A program made the position numbers and the translations under genes. This document shows positions 4,883 through 34,028 of a stretch of 64,000 nucleotides of DNA, piece after piece. Source of the DNA: Acholoe squamosa (Eukaryota; Annelida; Polychaeta; Phyllodocida; Polynoidae); NCBI GenBank assembly GCA_949317995.1, contig OX439037.1:55648080-55712079 (forward strand), written 5' to 3'. The first letter of the stretch is position 1; each line of letters opens with the position of its first letter. Below the pieces are notes generated by a model. That model was not told where the DNA came from, did no database searches, and saw nothing but the letters and a program-made list of their open reading frames with translations.

Positions 4883-4933
4883 CTCTCTCTCTGTCTCTCT
4901 CTCTCTGTCTCTCTGTCTCTCTCTGTCTCTCTG

Positions 4934-4998
<65 letters not shown>

Positions 4999-11600: not shown

Positions 11601-11806
11601 ATTCCTTGTCACTGTCCTGAGCGGGAACGATGAGCATTTCTAACATTAACCCTTCAAATGACGGCTCTCTGTCAATGTGTCCCTTTGTCGTAATTATGCA
11701 TAACATTCCTTGTCACTGTCCTGAGCGGGAACGATGAGCATTTCTAACATTAACCCTTCAAATGACGGCTCTCTGTCGATGTGTCCATTTGTTGTAATAA
11801 GACATA
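11601..11806. repeat. 103-bp tandem duplication
   Basis: Two adjacent copies (11601-11703 and 11704-11806), nearly identical. Each contains CATTAACCCTTCAAATGACGG, so the duplicated piece includes an end of the dispersed TTAACCCTT family. Confidence 0.85.
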
Positions 11807-14800
11807 ACTGCAGCCCTGGTAAATAATTCGGCAGTATTGTATTGAAACACCACGTTGTCCATTCTGGATCTTCTGTATGCATCAATGATGCACTTTAAGG
11901 GATGCATTCATCTTCTTGTTGTGTGCGATGTTAAAAAACAAACATTTGTAAATCACAGCCGCTGGATTGAACAATAAAGGACCTGAACATTTTATAGATT
12001 AATGACTGTCTACGTGCATTTCTTGGAGGGTTAATGGGAGGTGAAGGGTTAACTCCTCGCCCCTAACAACGATGGGCTTAAGTAGGTCCAACGCAAGTTT
12101 CTCTGGAGTTGTTCAGGGATGCCATACATGTCCCTCTGGCGGTAATGGCGGGCACGAGTAGCGTTTGACAAGGCGCCTTAGCGCTTTCTTTCCTCCAGGA
12201 CCCAGTCTCCTCCAGCTACCTTGCGGTTATAATTCTGATATACTGTAAAGGCGACGAGCTGCTCTTCACAACAGATGCTGGTTCCTATAGGAGCAGCTAA
12301 CCTACTGTGACATAGCTGCGCAGTCGGCTCCTCGCTCTGATTTGCCCTTCTCCAAATTGTGCTTTCTTGTAGTGTGTAAAGAAAGCAGATTGTTCACTGT
12401 GGTGAGAAGATGGCTCAGTTTTAGAAGCCAATTCTCTAATGTAATTGGCTGCCTAGGCTCTGAAGTGCCATACACTCACTCTTATGCTGGGTGGTAGGTA
12501 ACTGATGCTGATGCAAGTAATGTTTTATGTCTTATATCATATACCATTTACGGTAACCTTTTTGTTATCTAGTGCATTGTGCCCTTTGGTCGTAGGATGA
12601 TTGAGTGCAACACCATTGAGTTGTTCGCTAGATAGCTCGATTTATATGCATCACCTTGAACTTACACGGATGATACTCTCGGCCCAATGGAACAATGCTG
12701 CACTGATACTGCATTTTGGCATTATAGAAAGCTAAAGAATTCAGAACCTCCAAACACCCATCACCATAAAGTGTTAAGCAGTAGCCAACATCCGTTCAGC
12801 CAGGCAGGAAATAAAGCTCTCAGGTCTGTCATATCTCATAGCCCCGAAGGACACCCCAACCGGTGGATGGAAGCTCATTAACTGTATTTTCCAAGCTGGT
12901 ATCAGGATACTTATTACCATTGGTACTACGTTCCACGATAAGTGAGCCATATACCTCATCAAATTTGTGATTGAATAGGATCATGATTGGATCAGCTTGA
13001 TGTAAGCCTAAGGCTGTAAATACCATAACGTGTGCAGATGGCCATGTGGTATATGTTTGTGGAGTAGCAGCAGGTCTTTAAGTATATATCATACATCATA
13101 TGAATAGCCAATTGTTACAAACACCACGCTACAGCATAAGGTAATTCCCAGTCAATTGCATCAAGTAGTTTCAGAAATATCACATTTGTGGAGTGGCATA
13201 GCCAGTATGGTTCTGACCAAAGTCTGCCATTTGTCTAACTGAGTTATTCAACAAATCAGAATTCCACATACCCTGCCTATACCAATCAGAATTGGCGTTG
13301 TACACTGCCAACTGTTATGCCGTTTTCCATTGGGGATCTTTAAGGAATGCAAAGTAGCGAGGAATGTCACACCCTCATGCATACCATGCCTACTTCCCTA
13401 TATCGGGCCATACAGTATCGGAAGTGTGCTTGATATATGTCTTAATAAAACGTCCCAGCGAATCCCTCGACCAGGACGAAAGCTTCTCCTCCCAAGGGAC
13501 ATGCTAGCTCCGAGCCACTATTCTCTGTGCCGCCTTGCAACAGTCATAGGGGAGTTTTGCTTATCACATCTGACAAGTTGTCTACATATTCAAGACGCCA
13601 GGACGGGGGTAGGCTTGCTGCAGCTGCGCCTTCTGTCAAATAGCTATCTTCAAAATATAATGTCAATGCCTTTGCCATTATGTGCACGCTTTCTGTAGAC
13701 TCCAAATATAAATACTCTAAAAATTGTTGCAGGCTTACGTTTGCCTACTTGAGGGTGTACACCGCAGAAGCTATGACTACCGACCCCATCACACTTGCAT
13801 AGGACAAGGAGTTTCTCAACATTTCGACAGAAAGTAGTATGATGCAATTTAAAGGTCATGTTTTAGCACTGGCCACAAATATGGGCTTCTAATTCAACAA
13901 ACCAGTTCTGTCTTCTATACTAACTGATGTCCTCCTTGCCATTTGTTGAACTAGGCTTATCAATTGGTAGGCCTTTGAGCGCATATTCCATACTGATTTG
14001 CACCAAAATATAGCGCTGGCGAGTAACTCGCGAGCATACACTGCAACTGTGTATCATGTATACTTTCAGGACTGTTCAACATGATGATGAGTTACTTGCT
14101 AGAGCTCCAATATTCAAACTCGCTTGCCTCCACCCTGTGGTTAGTAGCATTGCAGAGAACATCTGTAAATGGTAATGGAATGGCGATGATGTTGGGGGGG
14201 GGAGGCAGCGAGCAGAACGCGTGCCACCGGTTGATCCATCATCAGTGGATGGGTGAGCCGTTAGTCATTGAAGGCGCCCCTAAATGTCATTTAAATTGCG
14301 TGTTGACTCCCTGTCCAGGCCGCCCTAAGCAGCTCAGCGATAGAAGGTTGTGGCTGTCGACGCCCGTCCAAAAGTGGAGAAGGCTAGTTTGTGTAAGGCA
14401 GTGGGAGTGGGAGTAGCCGGGCTCCTTAGTGTGCACTGATGACATGCAAGGCTCCGTGACATGGCACTTTAAACCTTTAATGACGACATGACATGACATG
14501 TATTGCTTTTCCTCATAAGGTGAGATCAACTTTTGGGCCCTTGAAGGGCGCATCAAACTCATATAGGGTTGGGATGATGAATTGATGTAATAATATACTT
14601 AAAGTGGGCTTCTTTATCTTGAATCATTCATCATGCCGGTAAAATCATGGTATCCTAAAGCTTTCAGCGTCCACTAAAGAATTGAAATAGGAAAGCCCCA
14701 GCAAACATATTAATGGGCTTTCCATTTAGTAGCTGAGCGATTGGCCTGGACATGTGCATGTCCAGTGATAATTACACACACCTTTTGTGTGCAGGACCAT

Positions 14801-15485
14801 TCGGCTGTGGTTAATTCTGAAATGCAATGGTGTCTTCACTGAAACATGTAATAATGCCTTTCAATGGAATCACATCAACTCCCTAAAATAGAAGTTTTCA
14901 CTTAATTACTAGTGATGATTTGTCATTGTCAGCTCAATGTTAAAACGGTTTCGATTTTGGAAACACCAACAGGGTTTTATGATTGTTCCAAATCTTTCCA
15001 TTTCATCTTTTCATTACTTTAGTCCAATGTTGCAAGCAACCTCACAACCTTTGACTAGAATGTGAAGATGGACCTTGCAATTTCGGGGGAAGCTGTGCAA
15101 TTTTAGGCAACAGCATGGGCGGTTTGTGAGGGAGGGGCTTGGTGTGTGCACACATTATCATATACTAGTCGCCACCTTGGTATTAGCAACATTAATAACA
15201 AGGTTCGTCCCATCAACCTTCAAGCTAGATTATAACTCTTAAGTGGTATATGTACATAAAAAGGAATATATTGAAAAAAGGGGAATTACTATTTTAGCGG
15301 TTATTTTTGTTGGTGGCGGTAATTATTTCAAACTATAACATGGTAGAAACCCCTAGCAACCATCTCCAGAAATCGCGCGAATGGCTTCGACACAACGATC
15401 CAGCCGCCTCCACAACACAAGTGGGTTTAGGTCACGGCTTATCTAGAGGCATAACTATGCTAAAAATTAGGTAGACACTGATAAG
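11807..15485. other. Non-coding stretch
   Basis: No gene is recognised. The 122-codon frame at 13330-13698 shows no family features. It holds one GAGCTGCTC (12256-12264) and a G9 run at 14194-14202. Confidence 0.5.
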
Positions 15486-16062
15486 TGGTGGCTCCACTAG
15501 GCGATTTTTTGGCACATTCTCACTAACTGCTATCCCTATAGTGCCTAAGCTATAGGGTGTTAACATTCCTATATTGTAAACATGAGATTCAAAATTGTAA
15601 ACATGAGATTTCAGGTGTTATTTCATGAGTGATCTCTCTCCTTGTGTGTTATATTTACAAACTAACCTGCACCTGCATAGACTCTGTGATTGGTTGGGAG
15701 TTCAATATATAAACAACAACACAACAAAATATAAATAACAACACAGCAGTCACACAGATCGCAGGGTCTTGTACTGTAAAAATCAAACCTGTCTGATATT
15801 GAGTTGCAGAGACTCCCCAATGTGAAAGTCTGCAATGTTTACATAACATCAGCTTGATTTAGTAAACAAAAACATCTTTCTGACAACACAGGCATGCTTG
15901 AGAGTGCACACAATCACATCCCCAGATAAACAAATAGCTCCCTCAACATACACATTCTACCTTGTAATGGTAACAAATACTACTGTTTAACCCATGTTTG
16001 TCTCCCATTTTCTGAGAATTTGCTACGATTCTCTGCAAAAATCGCGTAGTGGAGCCTCACCT
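15486..16062. mobile_element. TIR element, about 580 bp, GGCTCCACTA ends
   Basis: The left end GGTGGCTCCACTAGGCGATT is matched, inverted, by the right end, whose complement begins AGGTGAGGCTCCACTACGCG. The match continues with gaps through the TTTTTG and ATTCTC segments. The interior includes an 18-bp direct repeat (ATTGTAAACATGAGATT, 15576-15612) and CAA/ACA-rich sequence, with no coding capacity. It is probably an old MITE. Confidence 0.6.
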
Positions 16063-16229
16063 AATGACATATTCCCATCTGGGTGCCCAAGGGGCATAAT
16101 CAAAAGTATGTAAGTCACCCAAGGGAATTTACATGCAGAGCAAACAGTGTAACATCAAATAAGGGGGAACTCTTCCACCACAGCAAAGCAGACGACTTTT
16201 CCTGGAATAATCAAACCCCATGCCGCTTG

Positions 16230-16605
16230 GGCCAAAAAATAAAGTTTGTTTCCAGTTACTCGACCGACCCTAGACCAACAGGGCCGACCCTAATTTATTT
16301 ATTTTTATTTTTTTAATTTTGAGAATTTTAAGGCTTTTTAAAGCTATTTTTGTATTTTTCATAATTTTTCTTCCGTTCTTCATGAAAATCATCTATGGGT
16401 CTACAGTTATTAGCTTTAAAAAGCACAAATCTTTTTCACATGTCACGTTTGTCATAAATCTGAATCTCAAACCATGAATGTGATGGCATCAGCCCAATAC
16501 ATTTCTATACAAAATCCCAAAAAAATCTTTTTTTAAAAAAATCCGACCTACCGACCCTAGGTCTTGGAGGCATGTAACTGGAAACACATGATATTTTTTT
16601 TGGCC
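16230..16605. mobile_element. TIR element, about 376 bp, TTTCCAGTTAC ends
   Basis: Inverted ends of about 30 bp: GGCCAAAAAATAAAG followed by TGTTTCCAGTTAC on the left, and the complement of GGCCAAAAAAAATATC plus TGTTTCCAGTTAC on the right. Just inside each end is the word CCGACCCTAG. The interior is A/T-rich and non-coding. It lies only about 170 bp from the preceding TIR element. Confidence 0.7.
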
Positions 16606-17999
16606 TTGTCATTATGCAGCGTCTCCCACTAAAGTAAAATAGTGATTACCCCTGATGTAGGGCGGCTGTAGATATCACAGTATGCCCCCACTCACTGCAG
16701 TTCCTGCTATGGTAGCAAGACGCGCCTCATAGAACCTATGGGCAATTAGAAAAGCAGGCAGACAATGATTTGCTAGGGAAGGGGTCTGGGGAAGCCATAT
16801 GGGATGTGCCTGCTGTGTTACTTGAATGTATGGGACAGGGCTATATAGTGGTCTAAGAAGGCTTCGTATATATTATTCTGTGGTTCAGTGCACGTCTTTT
16901 CGGCATAACAATGCGATATTTATAGGGTCTAAGGGAACAATGGGGAAACTGTGGTCCCATGAATTACCTTCCGATTATTCAAACCTATTGGTTGGATGAC
17001 TATCATTTTATATCAAAGAACTCGGTTACAGCTAGAGCAGTTCCTTCTTTTACCAAACTGCTCATTCCTGTCAACCTGTCATATCTCCCCGTGTCTGCTC
17101 ACAGCCGCACACCCCCACCCACTCCTCCCCACACACACACCAAACACCTATACCCTAAACAAATCAGATCTGGTAGCGACCAGTCCGGTCGAGTATACAA
17201 CGAGATGGAATTGCTGATGATCCACAAGGAGAGAGTGTTCATCTCAGTGCAGTGACTGCAATAGTTTCAGCCTGTCTCTGGTGAGATTTATTAGCCACGT
17301 CTGATTGGCAACTGACAGCTGTAAAGTGGTCGCTACCTTCTTTAACCCTTCAAGGGCAGCATGCTACTTCCAGGGCCATGTAGCTTTGACATCCTGCTGC
17401 GGGTCTCCTTGCACTGGTGCACAATTCCGAGCGGTGTATGAAAACTAGTCGACTGTGCATGATGCATGTATATAGACTTCAATGGTTACTCCCCATGGCT
17501 GCCTTTATAGGGCATATCAACTGAAGGGCAAAGCACATTGAAGCACCATACCTGTATACTGCTCTTAAAGAATTACGATAAGAGGATTACCTAGGGACGC
17601 TTGGGTAGACAGAGTAGAATGCCTGCCTCTCATTGAGACGGATATCTTATCTACTTCTTAACATCCATGCTGTTATCTTGATAACATATTTCTGTGAGAC
17701 CGAGAGCGAGACAGTGGCTTTTTGAAGTAATTAATGTTCCGACTGGTTTCAATGTCAGAGTGGATTCATTGTCTTCTCCGTTGATAGCTGTTTTTTTTTA
17801 TCTGCTACTGATGTGCTCTGTGGAAAAGAATCAAAACTAAATTAGTATCAGTAGATATTTTAATAAATCACGACATTTACTATTCCTTTTGGCAGGAAAG
17901 TTTACAGTCAAATTCATTTAAAGTAGCTACACAACATCTCTTTGAAGACCGCATAATATCTAACAATTCATCTTGACTTGCTGTTATAATTCACTTAAG
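16606..17999. other. Non-coding stretch with a dispersed-repeat fragment
   Basis: No gene. At 17340-17535 a segment starts TTTAACCCTTCAAGGGCAGCATG and ends near AACTGAAGGGC, with GTGCATGATGCATG inside. It looks like a worn copy of the TTAACCCTT family. Confidence 0.4.
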
Positions 18000-18337
18000 C
18001 ATCTCTGCTGAGTGGGGGCTGGCGCTGAATTGGTGCATCATGCCAACCCTCATCTCTGCTGAGTGGGGGCTGGCACTGAATTGGTGCATCATGCCAACCC
18101 TCATCTCTGCTGAGTGGGGGCTGGCGCTGAATTGGTGCATCATGCCAACCCTCATCTCTGCTGAGTGGGGGCTGGCGCTGAATTGGTGCATCATGCCAAC
18201 CCTTATCTCTGCTGAGTGGGGGCTGGTGCTGAATTGGTGCATCATGCCAACCTTCATCTCTGCTGAGTGGGGGCTGGTGCTGAATTGGTGCATCATGCCA
18301 ACCCTTATCTCTGCTGAGTGGGGGCTGGCCAACCCTT
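18000..18337. repeat. 51-bp minisatellite, 6 full copies plus a partial
   Basis: The unit begins CATCTCTGCTGAGTGGGGGC and contains GAATTGGTGCATCATGCC. Copies start at 18000, 18051, 18102, 18153, 18204 and 18255, with a shortened last unit from 18306. Copies differ at only a few C/T positions. Because 51 is divisible by three, both strands stay open for about 100 codons, so the apparent repetitive proteins are artefacts. The array is bracketed by TTAAGCATC-type words (17996 and 18336), suggesting expansion inside an older repeat. Confidence 0.95.
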
Positions 18338-21300
18338 AAGCATCATTAAGGAAAAAGTGCCTTAATGCAATATATGCGTTTCTAAATGAATTGATATATA
18401 GATAAAGCAAGCTCCGTGCACAGCAGTAATCAGCTTCATTATTTGTTTTTATTTACACCCATGCGACTGCCTATTGGTAGTGTGGCATGAACTACCAACC
18501 ATGAGGAAAAGCCAAGCTAGTGCTGTCAGATTTAATCACAGCTACAGTAATATTGGGCGAGCAGCTCACTGGACTGCGGCGGACCAAAGACAGCTAGTCT
18601 GCGATCCACATAGATGTCTTCATCCAGCTAGAAGCCTGAGGGGCCTGCCCATGATTGCAGTACATCACATTGTGGCTATATATAAAAACATGGGTGGTAT
18701 ATGGTCCTCTTGTAAAGAAAAGAATAAACGTGGGAAAAGATTCTTCAGTAGGTCTTCTTTTTCTTCTGCAATAGCTCTTCTTTTGGGAAGCTAATCTAGA
18801 TATGGTAAATCTCCTAATGTTTGTTATATATGCACTTTGTCATTGGCTCCTTCTTCTCTAGACTGAAAGCGGTACGGTTGATATATCCTTGTAAAAAATG
18901 AAACACGCTACCTAGCAGTTTTTAGGGAGATGTAACTCCTGATATAGGATGGCTCCTAGCGTATGTTGTACCATGCGATTTATTACGGTCTGTTTCTACA
19001 CTGAGCTGTATTGAATCATTGAGATTATCTTTCTTTTCACTTTTTACATGAGGTGTAGCTCGCCTGGAAGGCCTGACAATCCAAGCTACCAGGGTGTGAC
19101 CGCGGCCGAGAGGTCCGGCCTCAGCCAGTGTAATCTCATCAATGTGGACTACTGTTGGTAAAGAGTTTCACGCCGAAGCCCCAAGCTCTAATTGATGGAG
19201 CGGCGGCTGGTGGAATCGAAAGGCAACAAGTCAGTGATGTATTGCCTCTTGTGGAATTACCTCCAGTTCCCGGTAGGGTCTGCAGTTTGTGCGGGAAACC
19301 AGGGGAGCCTCTTTCCCACTGCCTTCCTCTCCGTCCGCAGCACTCGCCATCTAACACCACAGGGCCTTAAATACAACCCCACCGTGCCCAATGTGATTGA
19401 TTTAAGTAATAAAACTGTGAAACAATGCATCACTTCTGGCTTTAGTCGCCCTTACATGATTAAGCAATTTGCAACGTCTTCATTGTGGCCGGGAAGAATG
19501 CTCATCGCATACAAATCCACTTTATTCGTTTTAGACGTTGACAAAAAGAAGAAGTATTATTAAAATGGCCTCCTTCATTGTCTCCTGTGATCAATTTCAA
19601 CAAAGTTGTAGTATCGATCTGCATACTTTGTTTCCACTGGAATAAAAGTCAACTCCATTCTTAATTCCAATAAAGAAATGAAGGGTAATTTAGTCTTGTT
19701 TTGAAGCTGCAGTGAAATGAGAAGGGGTGGTAATTAAAAACGATGAGGAACCGGATGTGTCACAATTTGTAAAGCATGAAATCCACATGTAGTTGTTTTT
19801 TCTTTGTTTTGTTGTGTTTTTGTTTTGTTGTTTTTCAGGGCGGGGGTAATTTCAGATATTTTTGTACTATGTGGCTTCATAGACCCCAATATCAAAATGA
19901 ATCGACATAGAAATAGGGTAGAGAAGATATGTTTCATGTGGAAGACCCCTTTTAGGAAGCAGTTCTTTCCAAACGTTTATATTTTCTATAAAAATTGACC
20001 AACCTTCCACTGGGATGTGATAAGGAGAATATGACCATTGAAATGAACCGCGTTGACCGATGAAGCAATAAATAATAACTATTTCTACGTCTCAAGAGAT
20101 TACACATTCTTAACTTCCGATCCACATCACACAATGAAATGCAACCACCTCTGTGTGTATCGATAACCACCAGTGACATTAGCTGTGTCAGCGTTTTACT
20201 TTAACTTTACTTCTGGTCACTGATCGACCTGATTAGAACTTCCTCCAGCCTCCACGCTCAGTGGAATTCAGACACATTTTGAATGACCTTGTGAAATGGT
20301 GATGGATGAAAGGCCCCATGTGGGTTGGAAAGCCGGGAGAGGAGGGCAAACCCTCCAGGGCCTGGGTGGGACATTACGGTAGACAGGCTTTATTTGATGT
20401 GAGCAGTTCTGACGCACTCAGAGCTGCTCAATAGCTGGTGCACCACCATGGAGGAGTAATCCTGCAAGTGATGCAGGCTTCCAGACTGATTTTTTTTTAT
20501 CACCTTAGTGGGAGAGGCTTTTGCCTAGCAGAAGAAGTACGTATCCTTCCCAGCTTTCCCAAAATGTCACATGGGCATCTTTAGTCTTTAGTAGAGCGAA
20601 GCAGAAGGCCGCTACCTACTACATATATATGCCTCTGGCTAAAGATGTTTTATGGCCATGAGCTGTTAATTTACTCCACTAACTGTCCTGTGAAGACCTG
20701 AATTCTAAATATTGCTTTCTGTAGAGTCTTTGACAGAATTCAACATCTCCTTTCCTTTATAGTCTTGGAAAACGCGCGAGGTTCGACCCTGTAGAACCAT
20801 ATATGTCGGAGGAGGGTGGGGGGGGGGTAGTTTCAATGCGTTCATGTATAGTACTACATGGGGACAGGGTCAGCTTTTCCTTTGCCAAAATGTGCGTACA
20901 TATTTAACAGATGGTCCCTATGTCACCCATGTGATCATGTGACGTTGACCACCGCCCCACCCCCTATCGTCCAGGGTGCTCCCTCCCAGTCCTATGTCCG
21001 GCCTGGTGTTAAGTCGGCACCTATCAGGTCCCTACCATACTCTGGTGTACATCCTGAAGAGAGCAATTTGATCTGGGGCTTGTGGCATCATGGTTCACTG
21101 CTTTGCCAAGGTGGTTATCTCTAATACAAACAGGCCTTCTCAAGTCAGAGTAGGATGTGAAAATATTGTGATGTACGCTACAATAATAAAATAAGGATAT
21201 AATTTACCTGATCAGTTTGTGTCAGTCTAAGGACAATAAGGGTGCAAGTCCGTCATATTGAATAACACGTGTTTGAATAGATGGCTACATTGGTGATGTA

Positions 21301-23635
21301 CCATTTTAGATACATCTATTCAAGCTCAATGCCCGTCAATGTCTGCCAGACGTGAACTTCTCCGCCTTATCTTGGTCCACAGCGTCAAGGGGAGACCGTT
21401 CTACAACAGGAGAGGATGAAGCACCTGCAGATCCATGTCCTACCAGCGTACCTAGAGCAGCAGGATTATAAGCCTCCTGATCCCAGTCTATTGATCCCTG
21501 CCTGACCTTCTGTAATTGTTACATATTTTTGTATGTAATTGCTACTTAGAAGTTGCCTTTTTAAATTGTGAAAAGTAGAGTGATTACAAAAATTAAAATA
21601 TGAGTGCAATGAGGAACAGATGGAGGTCTACTTGTCCACTTACCCTAGTTGTTTTCTTTTCGAATGCTTAATGCTTTTGGGTAACGTGAGGGGGGGGGCT
21701 TTGCCTGTGATCATGGAGAGGATTCTGGGATGGGGTCTAGGGGTAGATGCAGAGAATCTCAATAGTGATTTGGGACACATCGGATATCATCGGGAAAGTA
21801 AATGAGATTCTGTGTACCGAGTAGAGGCACTGAGTCGTTATGAGGGGTTAGTTGGAAGCAGGTCATGTTCTTAGATAAGGGCTTGACCAGTACCTCCTCA
21901 GCCCAAGATCCCGTGGAGAGCAGCTCCCCTACCGTCCTTACCCCATCAGCTGCTCGCCTCCAGAGGAGACCAGGCAACTCGTTCAATAAGCGGTGAGATT
22001 GGGAAGTTGCAGTGGGACCAGGGAGGGGGATTGCTGACAGATGATGGTTTAGCAGCAGCCACTGGTTTAGAACCTTTAAGGCAGCATGATACACTTAGTT
22101 TGGCTGTGCTGCACCAATGTGCATGCGGGTATTCTGCTGACTATCCAATTTGCACCAATCCCAGAGAGTCAACATGAGCAAGATAAGATGCATGAGCCCT
22201 GGCGTGTTCCTTGCAAGGACTGGATCCTTGCATCATGGCGACAAAAGGGCAGGACGCACTACATTGTTTTTAAAGAGTTATATGCAGGAACTAGTTGATG
22301 CAGGAGGCACACAGAGCGCTTCGCATGGACGAGGGCGATTGCAGCATCGGCCTGACAGGCCCCGAATGAGCTTTCCGCCGATGTGAACATGGTACTTGGC
22401 GCCGACGCAACTCCTACCCTGGAGGTGGAGGTGAGGCCAGGGCCAGATGAGACTGTTAACCTCCAGGATATAGCGACGGGGTGGGGTGGGGGTAGAGGAG
22501 TTTGGTTGAACCTAGATGATTCCATCAAGGGCCATTCTCACAAACACACCTAGATTTGTTGGTTATAAATGTCTCCAAACACGTTTTTACCTCCCCGCCC
22601 TTGACCCTTGATCGTGTTTATAATGTTATTAACTCGAAAAGCGAGTTTTAAGGAGACACCCTGGGGCCTTGCATTTTCAGTCATTTTGGTGGTGCGAATA
22701 AATTTAAAAAAAGATGGAAACTTTGTATATAAGAGGCAGAATTACTTAATGAATTTGTAGTGCCATTAAAGGAGGAGATGTAGGGGTCTTGCAGATAAAG
22801 GTATTTCATTACAAAGTTTTGTAAATTTTGAGAAATTGTCAATATTGGTTGGCAGCCATAAAATCCTTTTTGCCTCCAATGGTGAAGGTATATGATGTTG
22901 ATCCATGTATCAACTTTCCCGCCTTTTTTGGCAATGTGGTGCAAATAGCACAGTTTGGCAGGAGTTATGTGAATACTAGATTGGTGGTGCGAATAACCTG
23001 GGCGAGGGAGTGCTGATCACAACTCATGGGAGCCAATCACAGGCTTTTCACTTTTTGAGTTATCAGCAATTTACATTGCTGTATTATATTTTCTAATGGT
23101 ACAGTGTTAAAGCACCGCTGGGAACAGCCAATCATTAATGGTAAATTGCTAACTTTGTTGGATCAGCTGATAGTATATAAAAAACAACTTTAAATTGTAA
23201 AGAAAGTCACATGAGACTATAAACGACTAGATAAGTGTGGTTGCGCAAATTAGCCGTCCTGTGTCCCTCTATAGGTTTTTTTTGAAGCATGTTTTTGAAA
23301 GAACGACGTCTCCAACATAGGTAGAACTTGATTGATACGATTAATTAGAAAAAAACGCCTTTAGTCTGAAATGGAATGCTATTGACCCTACAGAGCTTCT
23401 GAAAACCAGCCATTGGCGGAATTCTATTGGCTTACTCTGTTATTCAGAATACCATATCATTATTATGTGTACCGTGTTGGCATTGGTCGTAACGTTATAA
23501 AAACAATATGTAGACTACTTAAACATTTTCTACGAGATAATTCTTCTGGATCATGATGTGTACATTAGTACTATAATTTATATTGCGTTGGTAAGTGTAT
23601 TAGTAGTTTTAGCTGTCTTGATAGGTTTGTATATT
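18338..23635. other. Non-coding stretch
   Basis: No gene could be established. A GC-rich patch at 19080-19370 is open on both strands, and a 123-codon frame ends at 19563 followed by AATAAA-type words; neither has recognisable domains. Exact GAGCWGCTC words lie at 18559, 20421 and 21918. G10 and G9 runs lie at 20818-20827 and 21690-21698. Confidence 0.45.
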
Positions 23636-23800
23636 CTCAGCCCCGGTTGTAAATGGGCAGAACCTTGCCATGTACTGGGCACGGGGCAAGCTATTGTAGG
23701 GCCATTAGATTTGTACTAACAGCAGCTCCTATTGTTTCCCAGAAATAGAAGCAATGTACTGTAAATAGCTTGACACAGTATGACAGTGTAGTCCCTTGTG
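23636..23800 (+). repeat. Interspersed repeat family E, copy 1 (SINE-like)
   Basis: Shares an ordered set of words with 53556-53720: TCAGCCCC, TTGTAAATGGGC, then GTTTCCCAGAAATAGAAGCAA and CTACTGTAAA-type sequence, then TGACARTGTAG. Similarity is interrupted by a variable middle. The length and GTTGTAAATGGG word are reminiscent of SINE bodies (inference); no promoter boxes were found. Confidence 0.6.
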
Positions 23801-24327
23801 ATTAACCGTTATAGTGGAGCCTGGTGATTTATTACATTACAGTCTCCCAAAGGTCAGCACATCAATTTGCAACTTGCTGCTGTATGATTGAAAAACGATT
23901 TCTAAATATCGGATTGGTACACTCTGCATTCATGGCGAGCAAATCAGAAACTCACTAGTGTTTCATCAGGGCATCATAGTGGTAAACATCTACTGCCACC
24001 GTAAAAGGGCTTACAGAGCCTTAAAAGGCACCAGGTCATCCCACGCAAATGCCAGCACAATTAGTGCAGAGGGAAAGCCAGCCTTTTCTAGTCGATGAAC
24101 CTCTATAGGACCCTAATAATTACATCACAAAGCCTATTCCAGCGGCCGCTTCTGAATCTGCGACCAGGAAATGCAATTGGACCGTGGCACTGGGCTCACT
24201 GATTACCACTGCTGGACGGTGGTGATGAAGGCAAAAGGTGACGCAAGAGGGGGGATAAAGGGGAGGGGAGGGGGTAACAAGACCGGTGTGTTCTTTTCTC
24301 AACTAGTGACAATGTTTCATCCTGTTG
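23801..24327. other. Non-coding stretch
   Basis: No gene or repeat is recognised. Confidence 0.4.
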
Positions 24328-25650
24328 ACATTCACAAAGTCAATTCACATTGTCAAACGCAAAGTCAATAGTCAATGAAAAATGAAAACTCAATCACCAT
24401 TTGGTTGCTGTCAACTGTAAACTGTCAATTCTCATATCCCAATTTGTGACAGGTATCTTTTAACAGTGGGGAGTGGGTAAGTATGGGAATGAGGGAAGTG
24501 AAAGAGCAGGAGGATGAGGGATGGGTGTTGGGGCATGGGAGAATGGGGGAGTAGGAAGATAGGAGTGGGGGTAGGGGAGTAGGGGGATGGGGGTGAGGGA
24601 GGGGGAATAGGGGAATGGGGGAAGTGGGGATGGGGGTGAGGGAGGGGGAATAGGGGAATGTGGGCAGTGGGGGAGGGGGTTGAGGGAGGGGGGAATAGAG
24701 GGAGGGGAGAATAGAGGAATGTGGGCAGTGGGGGATGGGGTGATGAGGGGGGGTAGGGGAATGGGGGCAATGGGGGATGGGGGTGAGAGAGGGGGTAGAG
24801 GAATGGGGGCAGTGGCGGATGGGAGAAGTAGGGGGATGGGGGAGTAAGGTGAGTAGGGGGATCAGGGACTGGGTGAGTAGGGGAATGAGGGGAATAGGTG
24901 AGTAGGGGAGTGAGGGGACTGGGTGAGTAGGGGAATGAGGGAGGGGTGAGTAGGGGGATGGGGTGAGTATGTTAGTAGGGAAATGAGGGGAGGGAGTGAG
25001 TCCCCTCATTCCCCTACGGACACTCTCCCCTCATTCCCCTATGGACACACTCCCCTCACTCCCCTACTCACCCATTCACCTGATTCCCCTACTCACCCAT
25101 TCCCTGATCCCCCTACTCACCTTACTCCCTCATCCCCCTACTTCCCCCATCCCTCACTGCCCCCATTCCCCTATTCCCCCCTTCCTCAACCCCATTCCCC
25201 ACCTCCCCCATTCTACTATTCCCCCCTCCCTCACCCCCATCCCCCACCTCCCCCATTCCCCTATCCCCCCTGCCTTAACCCCCCTCCTATCCCCCACTGC
25301 CCCAATTCACCTACCCCCCCCCCCTCCCTCAACCCCTATCCCCCTACTCCCCCCCCCCCATTTTCCCATGCCCCAACTCACCCCTACCTCATCCCCCCTG
25401 CATTTTCACTTACCTAATTCCATTCTCACCCACTCCGCAATGTTAAAAGATACCTGTCACAAGTTGGGACATGAGAATTGACAGTTGACAGCAACCAGAT
25501 GGTGATTGAGTTTTCATTTTTCATTGACTAATGACTAGGAGTTTGACAATGTGAATTGACAGTTGACAGTAACCAGAAGGTGATTGAGTTTTCATTTTTC
25601 ATTGACTATTGACTTTTTGTTGGACAATGTGAATTGACTTTATGAATGGT
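24328..25650. mobile_element. 1.3-kb fold-back element with G-rich and C-rich arms
   Basis: The two halves are inverted copies around a centre near 24996. The outer stems contain AATTGACAGTTGACAG and GTTAAAAGATACCTGTCAC-type sequence: left 24330-24464, right 25442-25647. The inner arms are GGGGGATGGGGGTGAGGG-type purine repeats (about 24465-24995) facing CCCCTCATTCCCC-type repeats (about 25001-25430). The right outer stem is duplicated in tandem (25478-25535 and 25553-25613), and the left outer sequence pairs with the second copy. Proline/serine-rich open frames over the arms are repeat artefacts. It may be a fold-back transposon or an inverted duplication of a minisatellite; no transposase is present. 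Confidence 0.8.
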
Positions 25651-25830
25651 ATATGATTTCTGATTTTCATTTCATTTTAGATTTTTTGTTTTTCATTCTT
25701 CATTGAATTTGTGAATGGTATATGATTTTTAATTTTCATTGCATTTTTAAAAAAACTGTTTTTCATTCTTCATTGAGTTTGCAATTTTCTTTTTCTTTTT
25801 CATTACACTTTCATTTTGTTTTTCATTTCT
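25647..25830. repeat. AT-rich tandem repeat, unit about 70 bp
   Basis: Two imperfect units each start GAATGGTATATGATTT and contain TTTTTCATTCTTCATTGA. They directly follow the fold-back element and share its TTTTCATTTTTCATTGA word, so they may be part of the same locus expansion. Confidence 0.6.
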
Positions 25831-26725
25831 AAATGTTGGCCTTCCTGGGCCACTGTAGTAGGCATCCACCAAAATTCTGTGTGTCTGGTTAAAACGCACG
25901 ATCACTCCCTCTCCCATGACTTCCATTGTTATTTATTGCCCCACTAAAACTTGAATCGTGTTTTTACACCGATGACAATCGAATTTTGCCTGACGTTTAT
26001 TAGCACATATCGACTTGCCAGGCACGGGAAAAATGTGATTAGAAAGTTTCCCCGTCCGCATTAGCCCCAATTTAAGCCCCCCCCCCCCTTAGCATTATCT
26101 ATATACAGTTTGTCACCTGTGTGGCCACAATTTGACCAAAAGAAAAAGTATGTCGCCATGCCTAGGCATACGAAGAATTTGCATTCTAAAGAAGCTTAAG
26201 AAAATTTGCAATATTATAACTACTTGATTTATTTTTCCCCCAGAGACGGTGGCAATGCCCAATATTGATGCCTGAATTGTACCCAGAGTCTTGAGAGTCA
26301 CCCAGAGGTGTAGTGGGTGGGTGGGAGGGCAGTAATGTAATTTCTGTTCTGTGAGCACTAACCACCTGGACCTGACTCCCTTTTTCTTAGGCCTACCAGG
26401 ACCTGCATGGTTACATTAGTGGCTTGTTGTGAAATGTGAGTCTGAATTATTAATGCATAAATAAGAACACAGTAATTGCCTCATGATAAAAACATAGTCA
26501 CAGAGGCAGATGGGGTGTTGTGGGGGTTTGATTCTAGACTTGTTGTGTATTTACTTAAAGTGTGTGACAGTGGTGAGGTGATGTACGTACACACATCCTG
26601 AGTTTACACAATCATAATTATTTCAATGTGCAGGTAATTCTTATGCAAACGTAAATGCTAGTAGACTTCAATGTGACATGAATATAATACTTCTCTGGCA
26701 TTCTGTGCTTATCTCATAAAGCACT
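25831..26725. other. Non-coding stretch
   Basis: No gene. A C12 run lies at 26077-26088. Confidence 0.45.
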
Positions 26726-26803
26726 TAGTCCACTTGGCCTCTGTCGCGCACTTGAGTCATACATATCCCATATAAATTTCTGCGACAAAGGTCCAGTGGA
26801 CTA
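26726..26803 (+). mobile_element. 78-bp mini-MITE (TAGTCCACT family), copy 1
   Basis: TAGTCCACTTGGCCTCTGTC at the left is answered by the inverted right end (complement TAGTCCACTGGACCTTTGTC). Removing TA from each side leaves GTCCACT...AGTGGAC, which fits a TA target duplication of Tc1/mariner type (inference). The same length and layout recur at 36944-37021 and 43948-44025. It is too short to code for anything. Confidence 0.8.
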
Positions 26804-27235
26804 TGCAGAGTTCTCCAGAAACGCCATGATTATACCGCGTATACTCGCGGCTTGTACACGAGGACCATTCATAACTCTAGCTCTAGCTCTAGAATGTCCC
26901 TAAACTCAGGATGCATCTTAGAGGTGTTAATATCTTGATATATAGAACATCATTAAATCCTCAAAATCCAGCCCCTAGCTATGCCTTATACCCGTTTCTT
27001 CAGCTGAGGGTGCGCCTTAAACACGAGGTATTATGCTACTTACATCGGTAAATATGATGGTGTAAAATGCAATGGATTTAACATAGGTTTGATAAATCGC
27101 CCTTTGTCTACCACTTACAATTACATGAGGATATCAATATAGTACTGAAATGACGTAGGCTTAGTAAGTGTGCTCCGCAACCTTCTGAGAACACTGGAGA
27201 AGGTATTTTGGGCGGAGGAATCTTTCCGTTGCCAG
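26804..27235. other. Non-coding stretch
   Basis: Nothing recognised. Confidence 0.4.
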
Positions 27236-27724
27236 TGTGCATGTGATGTTTCCATATACTACTAACATCAGTATTGTCAATGTGCACGTGATGTTTTCAT
27301 ATACTACTAACATCAGTATTGTCAATGTGCATGTGATGTTTCCATATACTACTAACATCAGTATTGTCAATGTGCACGTGATGTTTTCATATACTACTAA
27401 CATCAGTATTGTCAATGTGCATGTGATGTTTCCATGTACTACTAACATCAGTATTGTCAATGTGCATGTGATGTTTCCATGTACTACTAACATCAGTATT
27501 GTCAATGTGCATGTGATGTTTTCATGTACTACTAACATCAGTATTGTCAATGTGCATGTGATGTTTCCATATACTACTAACATCAGTATTGTCAATGTGC
27601 ATGTGATGTTTTCATATACTACTAACATCAGTATTGTCAATGTGCATGTGATGTTTCCATATACTACTAACATCAGTATTGTTAATGTGCATGTGATGTT
27701 TTCATATACTACTAACATCAGTAT
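27236..27724. repeat. 45-bp minisatellite, 11 copies
   Basis: The unit begins TGTGCATGTGATGTTTCCAT and ends CATCAGTATTGTCAA. Ten complete units and a 39-bp last one are in perfect register. Units differ mainly at TTTCC versus TTTTC, which alternate almost strictly (C T C T C C T C T C T), and less often CAT/CAC and ATAC/GTAC. This points to growth in 90-bp dimers. The period divides by three, so both strands are open for about 190 codons; these are not genes. Confidence 0.97.
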
Positions 27725-28284
27725 AGCCATCGGCCAGCGAGTTATGCTAAATAGACCTTGCTTTCAAACACATTCAATGTACTCCCGAATTGATTGATTT
27801 TGAGAAGAGGTCATAAGTTGGTCACATTTGACAATACTCTCCGTATGTAAGAAAATATGCAGTAGTTGCAATATGCATTATGTGAAGAGTATTCACGGCT
27901 AACACTCCATACAAACGCTCCATTAAAATAGATCTCATACACAATTTTGATCACAAATAAGTAACAAACATAAAAGTCTAAATAGGGGATATTCTGGATT
28001 GGTGAGGTAAGTAGGGTGGTGTCTAAGTCACCGGATGAATGCCATACTCATCAAAATTAACACCTATATGAGGGAAGGGGCAGGTGTCGGGCCTCCTGTC
28101 TCTGCCACCCTCACTCCCAGCCCTAGCCCCACCCAGGCTATGTTTAATAGATACCTGAAGCATAAGATGGTGGGCGGTGATGGGCAGGTTGGTGGGCAGC
28201 AGGAGACGGGTAGGCAGGATATAGTAGGGCTACTGGAAGAGGGGGAGAATGGTACAGAGATATTGACCGGATGGATGAAGACGG
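27725..28284. other. Non-coding stretch
   Basis: No gene. From about 28180 degenerate GGGCAGG/GGATGGATGAAG words grade into the following minisatellite. Confidence 0.4.
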
Positions 28285-28405
28285 GCTATGGACGAGAGGG
28301 AGTTATTAGGTGGATGAAGGACTTCAAGCTGTGGGAGGGAGGGAGTTATTGGGTGAATGGAGGATGGCGTGCTGTGAGTGGTGGCAGGTGGTATATATAA
28401 ATATA

Positions 28406-28457
<52 letters not shown>

Positions 28458-28492
28458 TATATATATATACATACATACATACATACATACAT

Positions 28493-28549
<57 letters not shown>

Positions 28550-28550
28550 T

Positions 28551-28625
<75 letters not shown>

Positions 28626-28834
28626 AGTGTGAGTGTGTGTGTGGGTGGATGGGGGGGTGACAAGCTGTTGGTGGGAGAGAGTCATGGAATGGATGGAGGA
28701 CTGCAGGCTGGGGTGGGAGGGAGTCATAGGATATATGGATAACCGCAGGCTGTGTGTGGGAGGGAGTCATAGAATGGATGGATAACCGCAGGCTGTGGGC
28801 GGGAGGGAGTCATAGGATGGGTGAAGGATTGCAG
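28285..28834. repeat. 43-bp minisatellite interrupted by an (AT)n block
   Basis: Unit of the type GCTGTGGGAGGGAGTCATAG...GGATGGATAACCGCAG. Units start at 28285, 28328 and 28371 (cut), then 28664, 28707 (42 bp), 28749 and 28792. The array is split by the simple-sequence block 28391-28645. Confidence 0.85.
28391..28645. repeat. (AT)n-(ACAT)n-(AT)n-(GT)n compound microsatellite
   Basis: About 255 bases: TA dinucleotides, then CATA tetranucleotides (about 28469-28503), more TA, then GT (about 28602-28643). It accounts for all the Tyr/Ile-rich open frames here. Confidence 0.97.
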
Positions 28835-30059
28835 GCTACGGTAGTGAGGGTGACCTAATGAGGTACTGTAGACTGTGAGTGGATGAGGGAAGACCTTTGA
28901 CGGGGAGAAGAGAACCCTAACCTCTTAGCACTGCCGCGAGTTCATAATTATCTGAATATAGTGAAAATTTGTGTAATTTTGCTTGTCCTTGTTGATAGGG
29001 GATCTATGAGAGGGCATGGGGATCTAGCCGTTGAAATCCCATGTTCTTACATAAATAACATTATGAGCTGCTCGGGCTTTCCTAGAATTAATCTGAGCTG
29101 CACTTTGTTTTGCTCTACAGTAATGGTGCTCAAGAGGTAGCCTCCCTCACCTGTGAGTGGTATCGTTCACACCGAGAACCATGTAGCAACGTTCAGAATT
29201 AATGGTTCTAGACGGCTTCCCACTTGAAATCCCTTCCCCTGGATATCTCCAGCATCACATCTATACATATACCATGTACAAACAGAAAATATCAATTTAT
29301 TGTGGAATAACACTTCTCCCAAAAGAGGGGTTTACCTATGTAAGAAAGAAGCTGTCCACTAACCGAGACCTCCCCCCCCCCCACAATGATATGCTTCCTA
29401 TGCCTCTGAAAATGAAACATGCTAAATGGTACTGTTAGATATGTGCGACACTTATCTCTTTCATCAAACACATCTTGATGCGAGTTCAACGACAGGACTC
29501 TGGAAGAAGGCGACGCTTGTACCAATGGGGTATAAGGGAAAGGGGAAAGAGTAGCATTTGAGACACGATGGAAATATTTTCTCATTACGAGTTGGTCTGG
29601 CCTCTGGTCTGGCCCGACATCTTCACACTTGGCGATTTCCTTTTGTCAGAGGCAGGAAGAACCCAAAGTCTCTAAACTCCCAAGCGACACCTCTATCCAA
29701 TCCCGTCTATATATATGCCCTTGTAGTTTGCACTATAGAAAAACACGCCCATCCAATATCGACCATAGGTGCGGCCTGTAATAGCCGGCACAGGCCTGCT
29801 TTGCTGATGGATGGCACAATGACCTTAGGACGGGCTATGGATTCATACCCGGGGCGACATGTTATTAAATCATTTGGCGACTGGGGTGTCCTACTGGCTG
29901 ATGGTCTTTGAGCGGAACAAAGTATGCTTTATTACACAGGTCAGTGAGGATGATTACATTGCTGGGGAGGGAGATAGTATTTGAACAGTGAACCAGCATC
30001 ACATACAATGTGTTTTAGGTGGGAGGTGGGGGATGGAATCTGAAAGGGCCTAGTACCTC
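28835..30059. other. Non-coding stretch with an hAT-like end fragment
   Basis: No gene. C11 followed by CTTCCTATGCCTCTG (29371-29408) is the right end of the element family at 10302-10650. One GAGCTGCTC at 29065-29073. Confidence 0.45.
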
Positions 30060-31811
30060 CCAGTAACGCTAGGGCCCGTTAGTGAGCTGCTCATCTTGGG
30101 CTGCTCAGACCTGACCATAGACTCAGGCACAGACCCGATCGCTCGTTGCAGTGCCCAATTGCCCCCAAACAGAGAGGCAGGCCTGCTGGAAAGGCTGCCG
30201 TCGGCTTGGTCTATAAGGACGGGGCTGGGGACAGACAAGACCGGCAAAGCCTTGTATGCCATCCTACTTACCATACAGCCGACCTGGGTTTTCTCTGTCT
30301 CTAAGCCAGGCTTGGAGCAGCTCACGCCTGAAGGGGAGCAGGGAATATTAAAGAGAGGTATATATGAGCTGTTCGCTTCTGTGCAATTGTAAGAGCCGCT
30401 CCAGTAACAGAGCAGTTGGAGCAGCAGCAGGAGCTGGAGCGGGAGGGGTGGCGCCACCTGGCGCGGAGACATGAATGGTAGACTCAACTGAGGCTTCAAC
30501 TGGATAGTCACCAGGCACAAGAGCAGCAGTCGGTACAGCAGCAGCAGGAGTGAGGGCAACAGCAGAAGCAGATCCCGACTCCTGCAGCGGCCCGCCCCTC
30601 CAACGTCCTCTGTTGATCGCTAGGCCCCCGGCAAATTCAGCAGCACCAGGAGAGACAAGGCGCCACTGTGCGCCGCATAGAAGGAGCAGCTGCGAGCAGA
30701 TCCATGTCTCCTCACGGGTCCTCCTCCCCACCCCCCTCCTTCTTCCCTCTCAATACTCACATTGCTCCACTGTAGACCCCCGGCTCGGCCCATCTCAGTG
30801 GATGTGTGACTGAGGAAGACTGAGGTCTTGCCTCCTACATTGGGGAGTCGGTTGTGAGCAGATCTACACGAAGCCGGCTGCCGGCTGCGAGCTACTCGGG
30901 CCTTCCCCGGGCCGATACTGCAGCTAGGCGGCTGCCACTGCGAGCAGCAGACCACCACAGCCATCCAACCTTACCAGCTGCTTGATGGCTGTACAGGAGG
31001 CGCCGTGGCCTCTGTTACGGTGACGTTAGCGGTTTAGGACGGACGGTTGCTGTCACAGTCTACCCTTGGCTTGACACTGCCGCAGTCACTGCTTACCATT
31101 GCCGCCCCACAGAACAGAAGGCCATACAGTAGAATTCTCCTTATTACCGCCACCTACTTTTCAGGACACAAGGGCCTCAGCGTTAAGCAGGATACCAGAC
31201 AGCCCGGGGCCATATTGTAGTGGAAGAGGGAGACGGTGATTAGAGACTGCAGTGTAGGACCCTAACGTTCATACGTGTGACAGTTGACCATACCGATGGT
31301 GCCCTTCACCGGGCGTTCTAACCATACGAGCCGTCCTCCATAAGTGTCCTACGGCCTAACATACTTCAACCCCTCCCTTGCTTCACTGCCCCCCCCCCCT
31401 TCCCGCCATATATACACGCCCACACCAACTACCTATAGCTCCTATCAACCCACACCCACACACACTGCCTGTACCGTTAGTGTATGAGAAGTGCATCCAT
31501 GGCGCTGTACCACGGCGAGTTACTGTGAACTGCTCACCGGCTGTCACCCACTGCAATGAGCTGCTCCCAATTGTCCAACGACCTGTGGACAAAGTCAGAG
31601 TGACCCCTACTGCCGCCACCACCACCAGCTCCTTCAGTATCATCACTACCAGCACCAGCGGCCAGCACCCCTCCAGCACCAGTCGTATTCTGCACCTCCC
31701 CTTCCAGCACACCCAGCACCCACCCACCCCTACACCCTCTCCGCCTCATCCCTCCAGTAGCCTTCCTCCACGGTCCCATATTAAGCCCGCCTACTATTGC
31801 ATATACATATG
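30060..31811 (+). promoter_or_regulatory. CpG-rich region upstream of the gene start
   Basis: GC- and CpG-rich compared with the flanks, and rich in CAG/CAC/CCA trinucleotides. It contains three exact GAGCWGCTC words (30084, 30315, 31558) and many near matches. A glutamine-rich frame (30366-30780) is broken by in-frame stops. It sits directly before the ATG-free leader, so it is the likely promoter or CpG island of the gene starting at 32765. No TATA box or initiator can be fixed, and the start of transcription is unknown. Confidence 0.45.
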
Positions 31812-32764
31812 TACACGTCTTCCACCACAACAGTAGGCGGACGGACAGGAGGCCTGTGTTTTAGTACAGCAATAGTCAGTTTAGGGCTGGCATCCAGGAC
31901 GGAACGGGGAGCGCCCTATTGATAGTAGTAGCATCATCACCCACCCACCCCACTCCCACCATCGACACAACCTATCACCACCACCGCAGTCACCACCACT
32001 GCCACCCGACACGCTCTCGCCCGGAGCGGCCACCACCATTCCCGCCTCCACAACCTCTGTGCCGGGTGTCCGTCCGTCCGCCGGCCTGTACGCACATATC
32101 GCAACCCAGCAATAAGGATAGCCAGAGCCCCTGCGCGGCCTGACGTGTCAGTGTAGGCTACTGTATACGTCACCAAGGTGTGCTTGACGTATAAGAACCG
32201 TCCAATCTGTTAACAAGCTGAATAATATCGACGTCTTCCATACGTCGTCTTGGCCTTCTTGTCGTCGCTCTTACATCCACGTAGCTGCACTGTGAGGTTT
32301 TAAGTGAGCTGCTCGTTGTACTGCCCGTCTATATACTACTCACTATTATACGCCACCAGCCTGTCCACTGAGGGAACTACTCACTACTACTCAGCCTTGT
32401 GCCCGACCAACACGGAGCCCTGCTTACTACCTCCGAGTGTCGCTGCCTCCAATATTAAAACCCGCTGTATTGACGCTGTGATTATACTACTATCGCACTG
32501 GACGTCTTCCACCACCCTGGAGGAGGAACATCCCTGGAGGAGCTCATCATACGAACACATCAGCGCTACTACCGCAGCACTTAAACACCCATAAACCAAA
32601 AACATAGTCTGACCCTAGACAATACAGAGCCTTTCAAGCCATTACCACATTGAAACATACACAGTTGTGAAAAAGTGAGCTTGCTCACATTATCCCCACA
32701 TACTCACCACCACTAACTGCTTTATTATCATCATCACCTCAGCACCTAACACTCATAACTCACC
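31812..32764 (+). other. Probable 5' leader (5' UTR), free of ATG
   Basis: Between the ATG at 31809 and the start codon at 32765 there is not one ATG on the + strand, although about 20 CAT occur in the same 953 bases. About 15 ATG would be expected by chance. Such strand-specific loss of ATG is what selection against upstream start codons leaves in a transcribed leader. The sequence is pyrimidine/adenine-rich with many CAC/CCT words. One GAGCTGCTC lies at 32306. It may be a single exon or contain an intron; no clear splice pair was found. Confidence 0.6.
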
Positions 32765-32852
32765 ATGGCTTACACTACTTTCAACCTTCTTCCCACACTT
32801 TTTGTTTTTATCTGCTATATCGTCACATCAACATTCGCCCAGAACGACCTAG
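32765..32852 (+). CDS. First coding exon of a secreted or membrane protein gene (5' partial)
   Basis: The start lies in a strong context (CTCACCATGG) and is the first ATG after a 953-base ATG-free stretch. The exon encodes 29 codons plus one base. Residues 1-7 (MAYTTFN) form a short n-region, residues 8-20 (LLPTLFVFICYIV) a hydrophobic core, and TSTFA|QND a good signal-peptidase site after residue 25. The exon ends AG|GTGAGT, a near-perfect donor, leaving phase 1, the phase usual for introns between extracellular modules such as EGF, Ig or LDL-A domains (established knowledge). The product therefore probably enters the secretory pathway; its family cannot be told from this exon. The open frame does not continue usefully past the donor, and downstream exons were not found with confidence. 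It could alternatively be a single-pass or GPI-anchored protein. Confidence 0.7.
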
Positions 32853-34028
32853 GTGAGTGCACAACTCCAAATGGCATGCCGTGTGAAAACAATGATAATA
32901 TCATCTGCCCCACTCCAGGTTATCACTGAATATTGCTGCTCTATTTCCTTCCAGCTTCCTCCAGGCATGATGTTCCATGATAGACTCTATTTAACCTTCT
33001 TTTTTTCAACGTTGCAAGCTTTCTTTATTAAAGCCGTTCAAGGTACCATTCTTTCCTCCTCAATTAAATGGTGAAGAATTTGTAGGTAAGCGAGGAAGTG
33101 ATTTCTACAAAGGTAAAGTATTCTCCCTAGAGCCTTTGAATTACCTAGTACAATGAGTGAAAGTATTCGTCCAGGGCAGAGGAAAGCTCTAGCAACCCCT
33201 TTGAGTAATGTGATGTCGGCTTAATCTTGTTACTATGGTAATGAAGCAGTAAATCCAATCAGGAGTAGAGGGACAGTGCCAGCTTCCACAGGCCTGTCAA
33301 TTACTACACAAAATACCATTGGTCGGCGGGTCATTTATTACACATTACTGGGTCAGCATGTTGTATAGCAGCCCTCTGGACCCAGTCCATGTTGGGACAA
33401 TAGTGTAAACAGTGTCCCTCCCTTAAACCCTTTGGGACTGGACAGTGCTTAAAGGCTCTTTGCCTTTTGTCAGCAGGAATCATCCCCGGGAAACATCAAA
33501 GCAGCATGTGGAAACATCTAATCGATGTTGTATTTATGCACCATGCTGCCATTTCACAGCATCTGATCCCCATGGCCTATTTAGATACATTATTAGAATG
33601 GTGCACTAACATTTAAGCATTTATTTTGGGTGTAACCACCGATAAGAGGTCCAGATAAGCTAAAGGTAACTGTAGCCAAAAAGAATCGTCATCATGATAC
33701 ACCGATACAGAGCTGGCGAGCCACTCACTGATGCAGCATTGGTATATCATGGTGGGTCATCATGGTGAAGTAGTCCTATAAGGGCTCAATGCATCATGCG
33801 GTCCTTAAAGGGTCAAAGGGATCCCATACCACATCCCTTGAGTTCCTAGGCGACGACGCTCAGGGAAAATATTGATTAGAGGACTAATTTGCGGAAGGGG
33901 AGAAGTTTATATGCTCCATAAAAGAAGTAATTAATTGTGTAAAGACTTTGGATGGTCTCTCATCAAAGGCTGCTCTCCTTGCTGTTGAATTAATGTTTTC
34001 GGCCGACAGAAGCCTGTCCCTGCCTCAG

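What the first reader, a model, noticed from the sequence alone, without database searches (positions are those of the whole stretch)
31812..32852. Strand-specific ATG desert leading into a signal-peptide exon
For 953 bases before the start at 32765 there is no ATG on the + strand, against about 15 expected, while CAT (ATG on the other strand) occurs about 20 times. The first ATG opens a classical signal peptide with a cleavage site and ends at AG|GTGAGT. Together these give independent support for a real secreted-protein gene with an unusually long leader that has been kept free of upstream starts.
Basis: partly seen in the sequence, partly recalled or inferred. Interest (0 to 1): 0.75.

Follow-up and report, generated by a model that had tools for sequence, protein, structure and literature searches.

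The report
Start of a CUB-domain secreted-protein gene
The ATG-free stretch is real and is most likely the untranslated front end of an ordinary animal gene for a secreted or cell-surface CUB-domain protein whose next exons lie about 99 kilobases downstream; only its length is unusual.

Summary
Window 31812-32764 has no ATG on the + strand (11.4 expected from its own dinucleotides; 0 of 20,000 shuffles had none). The 955-base gap is the longest ATG or CAT gap in 264 kb; the next is 472. CAT is not enriched (22 against 19.5). The ATG at 32765 (CACCATGG, in-frame stop 9 bases upstream) opens a signal-peptide-like exon ending in a phase-1 AG|GTGAGT donor after 32852.

I looked for the rest of the gene. 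On the same strand, 98.7 kb downstream, four exons encode two CUB domains. The first starts in the phase the donor needs. Joined in silico, the five exons read in frame: signal peptide, CUB, CUB (286 aa; Pfam CUB 7.6e-36). By my criteria the 32765 exon is the only candidate among 2,894 ATGs upstream; looser settings admit others, and some pass by chance elsewhere.

Best reading: the 5' end of a CUB-CUB gene, resembling SOL-1/Neto/Loaf-type synaptic proteins but not assigned to them, with a long AUG-free leader as a strong case of known upstream-AUG avoidance. No transcript, related species or 3' end was available, so leader length, the splice and selection are inferred.

The parts
31812..32764 (+). 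ATG-free stretch, proposed 5' untranslated leader (upper limit of its length; true transcription start unknown)
   Evidence: 0 ATG against 11.4 expected, 0 of 20,000 shuffles empty; longest ATG or CAT gap in 264 kb
31751..32500 (.). CpG-rich core, possible promoter region
   Evidence: CpG observed/expected 0.89 and 1.03 in the 500-base windows at 31751 and 32001; 0.14-0.68 in the other windows shown between 28 and 36 kb
32756..32758 (+). in-frame stop TAA, 9 bases before the start codon
32765..32852 (+). first coding exon, MAYTTFNLLPTLFVFICYIVTSTFAQNDL plus one base of the next codon (phase 1); signal-peptide-like, cleavage probably after A25 by eye
   Evidence: translation; only candidate among 2,894 ATGs at strict settings; phase; no signal-peptide predictor was available
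32853..32858 (+). splice donor GTGAGT, start of the proposed 98.7-kb first intron. The CUB exons lie outside the window at genome C3 55779599-55779794, 55790061-55790248, 55803617-55803788 and 55806478-55806692 (L008:7520-7715, L009:7982-8169, L011:1538-1709, L011:4399-4613)
   Evidence: donor score 6.8; exon joins and phases

Best explanation
The stretch is the 5' end of an ordinary spliced animal gene on the + strand. A CpG-rich promoter or leader region of up to about 950 bases without AUG leads to the start codon at 32765 in a strong context. The first coding exon carries a signal peptide and is spliced at AG|GTGAGT over a 98.7-kb intron to exons for two CUB domains, giving a secreted or membrane-anchored protein (signal peptide, CUB, CUB, remainder unknown). 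Because the scanning ribosome starts at the first good AUG, an AUG-free leader lets it reach the signal-peptide start unhindered; selection against upstream AUGs is the likely reason for the desert. Shown: the ATG absence and its strand asymmetry, the exon features, the CUB exons, the agreement of phase and frame. Inferred: transcription start, the splice of exon 1 to the CUB exons, secretion, and selection.
For: ATG absence. CpG-rich core. Strong start context and nearby in-frame stop. Signal-like exon with a strong phase-1 donor, the only strict candidate of 2,894 ATGs upstream of the CUB exons and first under looser settings. Four CUB exon pieces on the same strand with Pfam support and AG/GT borders; the first needs a phase-1 partner. 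The five-exon join is in frame and scores 7.6e-36 for CUB with two stretches. The first CUB domain begins soon after the signal peptide, as in a typical extracellular protein. No Pfam domain of another gene was found on the + strand between 32850 and 62701 or in L002-L006.
Against: No transcript, no related genome and no signal-peptide predictor. A first intron of 98.7 kb is much longer than the others found (10.3, 13.4, 2.7 kb). Phase agreement alone has a one-in-three chance. Signal-like phase-1 exons also pass the strict test by chance: 1 of 2,883 ATGs further along the + strand and 8 of 5,799 on the - strand. The CUB1a donor is weak (1.4). The high CUB score tests the joins among CUB exons, not exon 1. 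The 3' end was not found. The distal third of the desert is not significant (P 0.054) and mild ATG shortage extends upstream (5 against 9.3, P 0.046).
Confidence: 0.78

Rival explanations
1. Exon 1 belongs to a different + strand secreted-protein gene, for instance a small peptide precursor without a Pfam domain, whose other exons lie between 33 and 131 kb; the CUB gene has its own, undetected first exon. The leader reading would be unchanged.
For: A 98.7-kb intron is needed otherwise; Pfam cannot see short or unknown exons; looser settings admit other first-exon candidates for the CUB gene (6 or 9 candidate ATGs, this one included).
Against: None of the looser candidates matches exon 1 in signal core, donor or ATG-free run. 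No Pfam domain on the + strand in 32850-62701 and L002-L006.
Confidence: 0.13
2. The gene is as described but the mRNA leader is much shorter: transcription starts inside the stretch, or an intron lies in it, and the distal ATG absence is chance or promoter composition. This overlaps the best explanation and competes only with the long-leader part of it.
For: The distal third is not significant (P 0.054). A TATATA at 32330 and TCAGT motifs at 31876 and 32148 are possible start elements, and an acceptor-like site ends at 32742. Two donors scoring 3 or more lie inside.
Against: 31812-32250 as a whole still gives P 0.0027 for no ATG, and the total run is far outside the local range.
Confidence: 0.35
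3. No gene starts here: the desert is a chance result of C-rich, G-poor sequence.
For: Composition is skewed (C 316, G 180) and lowers the expected ATG number.
Against: Shuffles with the same dinucleotides never gave zero (0 of 20,000), and the ATG that ends the run opens a well-formed signal exon.
Confidence: 0.03
4. The exon does not end at AG|GTGAGT but reads on to the stop at 32927, making a 54-residue peptide with three cysteines near its end.
For: The frame is open over the donor; a weak own-genome match covers part of it (E 1.19).
Against: No Pfam match, only a meaningless PDB match (E 8.8); the donor is strong (6.8).
Confidence: 0.04

Closest known systems
SOL-1 (C. elegans) and dSol-1 (Drosophila), CUB proteins that modulate GLR-1-type glutamate receptors
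   Same: Extracellular protein built of CUB domains (PMC9083331, passages). Similarity of the second CUB to insect 'suppressor of lurcher' entries is recalled, from no call.
   Different: They have four CUB domains and a transmembrane segment; here two CUB domains and no further CUB in the + frames scanned to 264 kb.
Neto (Drosophila), SOL-2 (C. elegans), NETO1/2
   Same: Two extracellular CUB domains; Neto2 is among 40 PDB sequences matched (1.2e-9).
   Different: They add an LDLa domain and a transmembrane segment; neither was found here, but the 3' end is missing.
Lost and found (Loaf), Drosophila CUB-LDL protein
   Same: CUB-containing extracellular part (PMC8205486, passages).
   Different: Loaf also has LDLa and transmembrane domains; not found here.
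Cubilin, neuropilin-2 and procollagen C-endopeptidase enhancer 1 (best PDB matches)
   Same: CUB tandem; E 5.7e-38, 3.2e-18 and 2.2e-16.
   Different: Architectures differ (many CUB in cubilin; other domains in neuropilin and the enhancer; recalled). Matches reflect the shared CUB fold.
Upstream-AUG depletion in 5' leaders
   Same: AUG is significantly depleted in mammalian 5'UTRs, read by the authors as purifying selection (PMC2674463, passages).
   Different: There the depletion is partial (human alternative regions 10.2 observed, 12.9 expected); here it is complete over up to 953 bases.

Membership tests
CUB-domain protein (PF00431) | CUB domain above the curated Pfam cut-off | tested here: met
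   Joined protein 123.2 bits against cut-off 21.4, two stretches
Secreted or type I membrane protein | N-terminal signal peptide | tested here: inconclusive
   Meets my mechanical criteria; no dedicated predictor, and chance candidates exist
SOL-1 / dSol-1 | Four extracellular CUB domains | tested here: not met
   Exons for two CUB domains; no further CUB match in the + frames of L012-L021 at E up to 0.1. A more distant 3' part cannot be excluded
Neto / SOL-2 / Loaf | LDLa domain after the CUB domain(s) | tested here: inconclusive
   No LDLa match in the + frames of L007-L021, but the 3' end of the gene was not found
SOL-1, Neto, SOL-2, Loaf | Transmembrane segment | tested here: inconclusive
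   No convincing phase-1 transmembrane exon in 158.7-200 kb
Glutamate-receptor auxiliary subunit | Modulates receptor currents | not testable with these tools
   Needs experiment
Leader under upstream-AUG avoidance | Fewer AUG than dinucleotides predict, on the sense strand only | tested here: met
   0 against 11.4; CAT 22 against 19.5
Leader under upstream-AUG avoidance | The stretch lies in the mature mRNA | not testable with these tools
   No transcript data
Leader under upstream-AUG avoidance | AUG absence kept in related species | not testable with these tools
   The genome tool states that this genome has no relatives here

The most novel reading that the evidence does not exclude
The whole 953-base leader is present, unspliced, in the mature mRNA of a synaptic-type CUB protein and is held free of every AUG by selection, because this message must be translated by uninterrupted long-range scanning or because the leader holds a regulatory element. 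It would be an extreme natural case of upstream-AUG avoidance.
Probability: 0.3. Interest if true: 0.4.

Novelty: new member of a known kind. Interest (0 to 1): 0.28.

Why it matters
It shows that a strand-specific ATG gap, measured against shuffles and against CAT, can point to a gene start in raw genomic DNA when the rest of the gene appears to lie 100 kb away. The gene itself looks like a normal animal CUB-domain gene. If the leader is real at full length, it is a clean natural test of how strongly upstream AUGs are selected against.

Tried and rejected
Rejected: reading the frame past the donor as a clip-domain-like or three-cysteine peptide (54 aa). No Pfam, PDB only E 8.8, own genome beyond itself only E 1.19.

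Rejected: a trypsin-type protease downstream.

Tried without result: Pfam over + frames of the window and L002-L006, Rfam, tRNA, folding of the leader (z -0.80), search for the 3' end of the CUB gene, literature for 'suppressor of lurcher protein' with 'mollus' (0 papers).

Not covered: Pfam was not run on the minus strand, on window 1-17799, on two of the three + frames of 17800-32799, or on about 62700-64000. The ATG-gap control covers 264 kb, not the genome. The paralogue search for CUB exons in the own genome did not complete.

Papers: PMC4194045, PMC7202007, PMC8205486, PMC9083331 and PMC2674463 were seen as passages; other titles only in listings.

The NADAR frame is in L015, not L016 as first written.

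Full report
WHAT WAS CLAIMED.

ATGs stand at 31809 and 32765 and nowhere between. From the stretch's own dinucleotides 11.4 are expected; none of 20,000 shuffles had zero (minimum 2). CAT occurs 22 times against 19.5 expected (806 of 3,000 shuffles reach 22), which is normal. Over 264 kb (window plus 200 kb downstream) the 955-base gap is the longest of all ATG and CAT gaps; next come 472 and 468 (CAT) and 455 (ATG). The lowest ATG count per 953-base window in the 26 other ten-kb blocks is 6 to 16.

LIMITS OF THE OBSERVATION. In thirds the stretch gives P = 0.054, 0.013 and 0.001 from distal to proximal, so the distal third alone proves nothing. Upstream of the desert, 30986-31811 has 5 ATG against 9.3 expected (P 0.046), so part of the shortage is not specific to the leader.

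LEADER ANATOMY. CpG observed/expected is 0.89 and 1.03 in the 500-base windows at 31751 and 32001, and 0.14-0.68 in the other windows shown between 28 and 36 kb. No donor scoring 4 or more lies in 30501-32764, but in the 953 bases only 0.39 are expected by shuffle, and two scoring 3 or more are present, so this hardly argues against a leader intron; an acceptor-like site ends at 32742. The predicted RNA fold is unremarkable (z -0.80). A DNA search with 31800-32900 found only itself in the genome (that search skips very common words), and Rfam has no match in the window.

THE CODING EXON. The start context is CTCACCATGG and an in-frame TAA lies 9 bases upstream, so an extension to an upstream in-frame start is excluded for an unspliced leader. 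Translation to the donor gives MAYTTFNLLPTLFVFICYIVTSTFAQNDL. I judge cleavage to fall after A25 by eye; my script's simple rule put it three residues earlier. The frame stays open to a stop at 32927, so the donor had to be tested by finding a partner.

THE REST OF THE GENE. Pfam over the three + frames of 32850-62701 and of L002-L006 found nothing. In L007-L011, 4 of 15 frames matched CUB, and a reverse transcriptase match showed that the method works. Exons were placed by motif, Pfam and sequence: genome C3 55779599-55779794, 55790061-55790248, 55803617-55803788 and 55806478-55806692. In order, they start and end in phases 1 and 2, 2 and 1, 1 and 2, 2 and 1; the signal exon ends in phase 1, so all five join in frame. 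The CUB1a donor is weak (1.4).

DOES THE SIGNAL EXON BELONG TO THEM? Joined, the five exons give 286 residues: signal peptide, a CUB domain almost at once, then a second CUB. Pfam CUB scores 7.6e-36 with two stretches; three of the pieces alone scored 5.7e-6, 7.6e-6 and 0.008. That gain comes from joining CUB exons to each other and does not test exon 1. In the PDB, 40 sequences match, best cubilin (5.7e-38), then neuropilin-2 (3.2e-18), procollagen C-endopeptidase enhancer 1 (2.2e-16) and, lower, Neto2 (1.2e-9). For exon 1: of 2,894 ATGs in the 131.5 kb before the first CUB exon, one passes a strict signal-plus-phase-1-donor test, this one. Looser donor settings admit 6 or 9 ATGs, this one ranked first. 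As controls, 8 of 5,799 ATGs on the - strand of the 264 kb and 1 of 2,883 further along the + strand pass the strict test, so passing is not very rare. None of those has so strong a donor or so long an ATG-free run, and one equals it in signal core. I put the join at about 0.8 and a real secreted-protein start at about 0.95.

HOW IT WORKS. By the scanning model (established knowledge), an AUG-free leader lets the ribosome reach the signal-peptide start without starting early. AUG is depleted in mammalian 5'UTRs as a class, which the authors read as purifying selection (PMC2674463, passages). The desert would be a strong case of that known effect. [quoted passage not shown] Whether it is secreted or anchored is open because the 3' end was not found.

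COMPARISON WITH KNOWN FAMILIES. It is a CUB-domain protein by test. SOL-1 and dSol-1 have four CUB domains; Neto and SOL-2 have two CUB and an LDLa; all have a transmembrane segment (PMC9083331, passages). Loaf has CUB, LDLa and transmembrane domains (PMC8205486, passages). Here two CUB domains were found, and no LDLa or further CUB in the scanned + frames of L007-L021. I therefore do not file it as SOL-1 and leave Neto and Loaf open. The likeness of the second CUB to insect 'suppressor of lurcher' entries is from memory only.

VERDICT. Observation confirmed. Interpretation partly supported: the gene is well supported, while the leader's length and its protection by selection are inferred. A new member of a known kind with an unusually clean leader; interest is modest.

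Noticed in passing
window 24425-25480: A long G-rich array (units like GGGGGAGTAGGGGGAT) on the + strand runs at about 25001 straight into a C-rich mirror array, so the two halves form an imperfect inverted repeat.
   Followed up: no
window 27229-27724 and 18000-18329: Tandem repeats of 45 bp (11 copies) and 51 bp (6.5 copies); both units are multiples of three and stay open in several frames on both strands.
   Followed up: no
extended 166421-167955, minus strand (L012): Two open frames that look like a serine/threonine kinase of Mos or RIPK type; the label is recalled, no family search was run on that strand.
   Followed up: no
extended about 174-193 kb, + strand (L013-L014): Two P450-like genes with large exons lie downstream on the same strand (frames; Pfam p450 7e-84 in 4 of 15 frames of L012-L016).
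   Followed up: partly
L002:2628-3097 (extended 66628-67097): A 468-base stretch without CAT, CpG observed/expected 0.80: a possible leader of a minus-strand gene.
   Followed up: no
L015:8811-9998 (extended 202811-203998), + strand: An open frame that probably carries the NADAR domain found in one of 15 frames of L012-L016 (6.9e-19; assignment to this frame is mine), followed by reverse-transcriptase-like frames, so it may ride on a mobile element.
   Followed up: no
L017-L021, + strand: One frame each with weak matches to HYDIN/CFAP65-like Ig, Cep192 and MSP domains (best 0.00034): perhaps a ciliary-protein gene further downstream.
   Followed up: no
L023 (C6:21129192-21129302): Weak match (E 1.19, 50% identity) to the read-through peptide after the donor; taken as chance.
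   Followed up: partly
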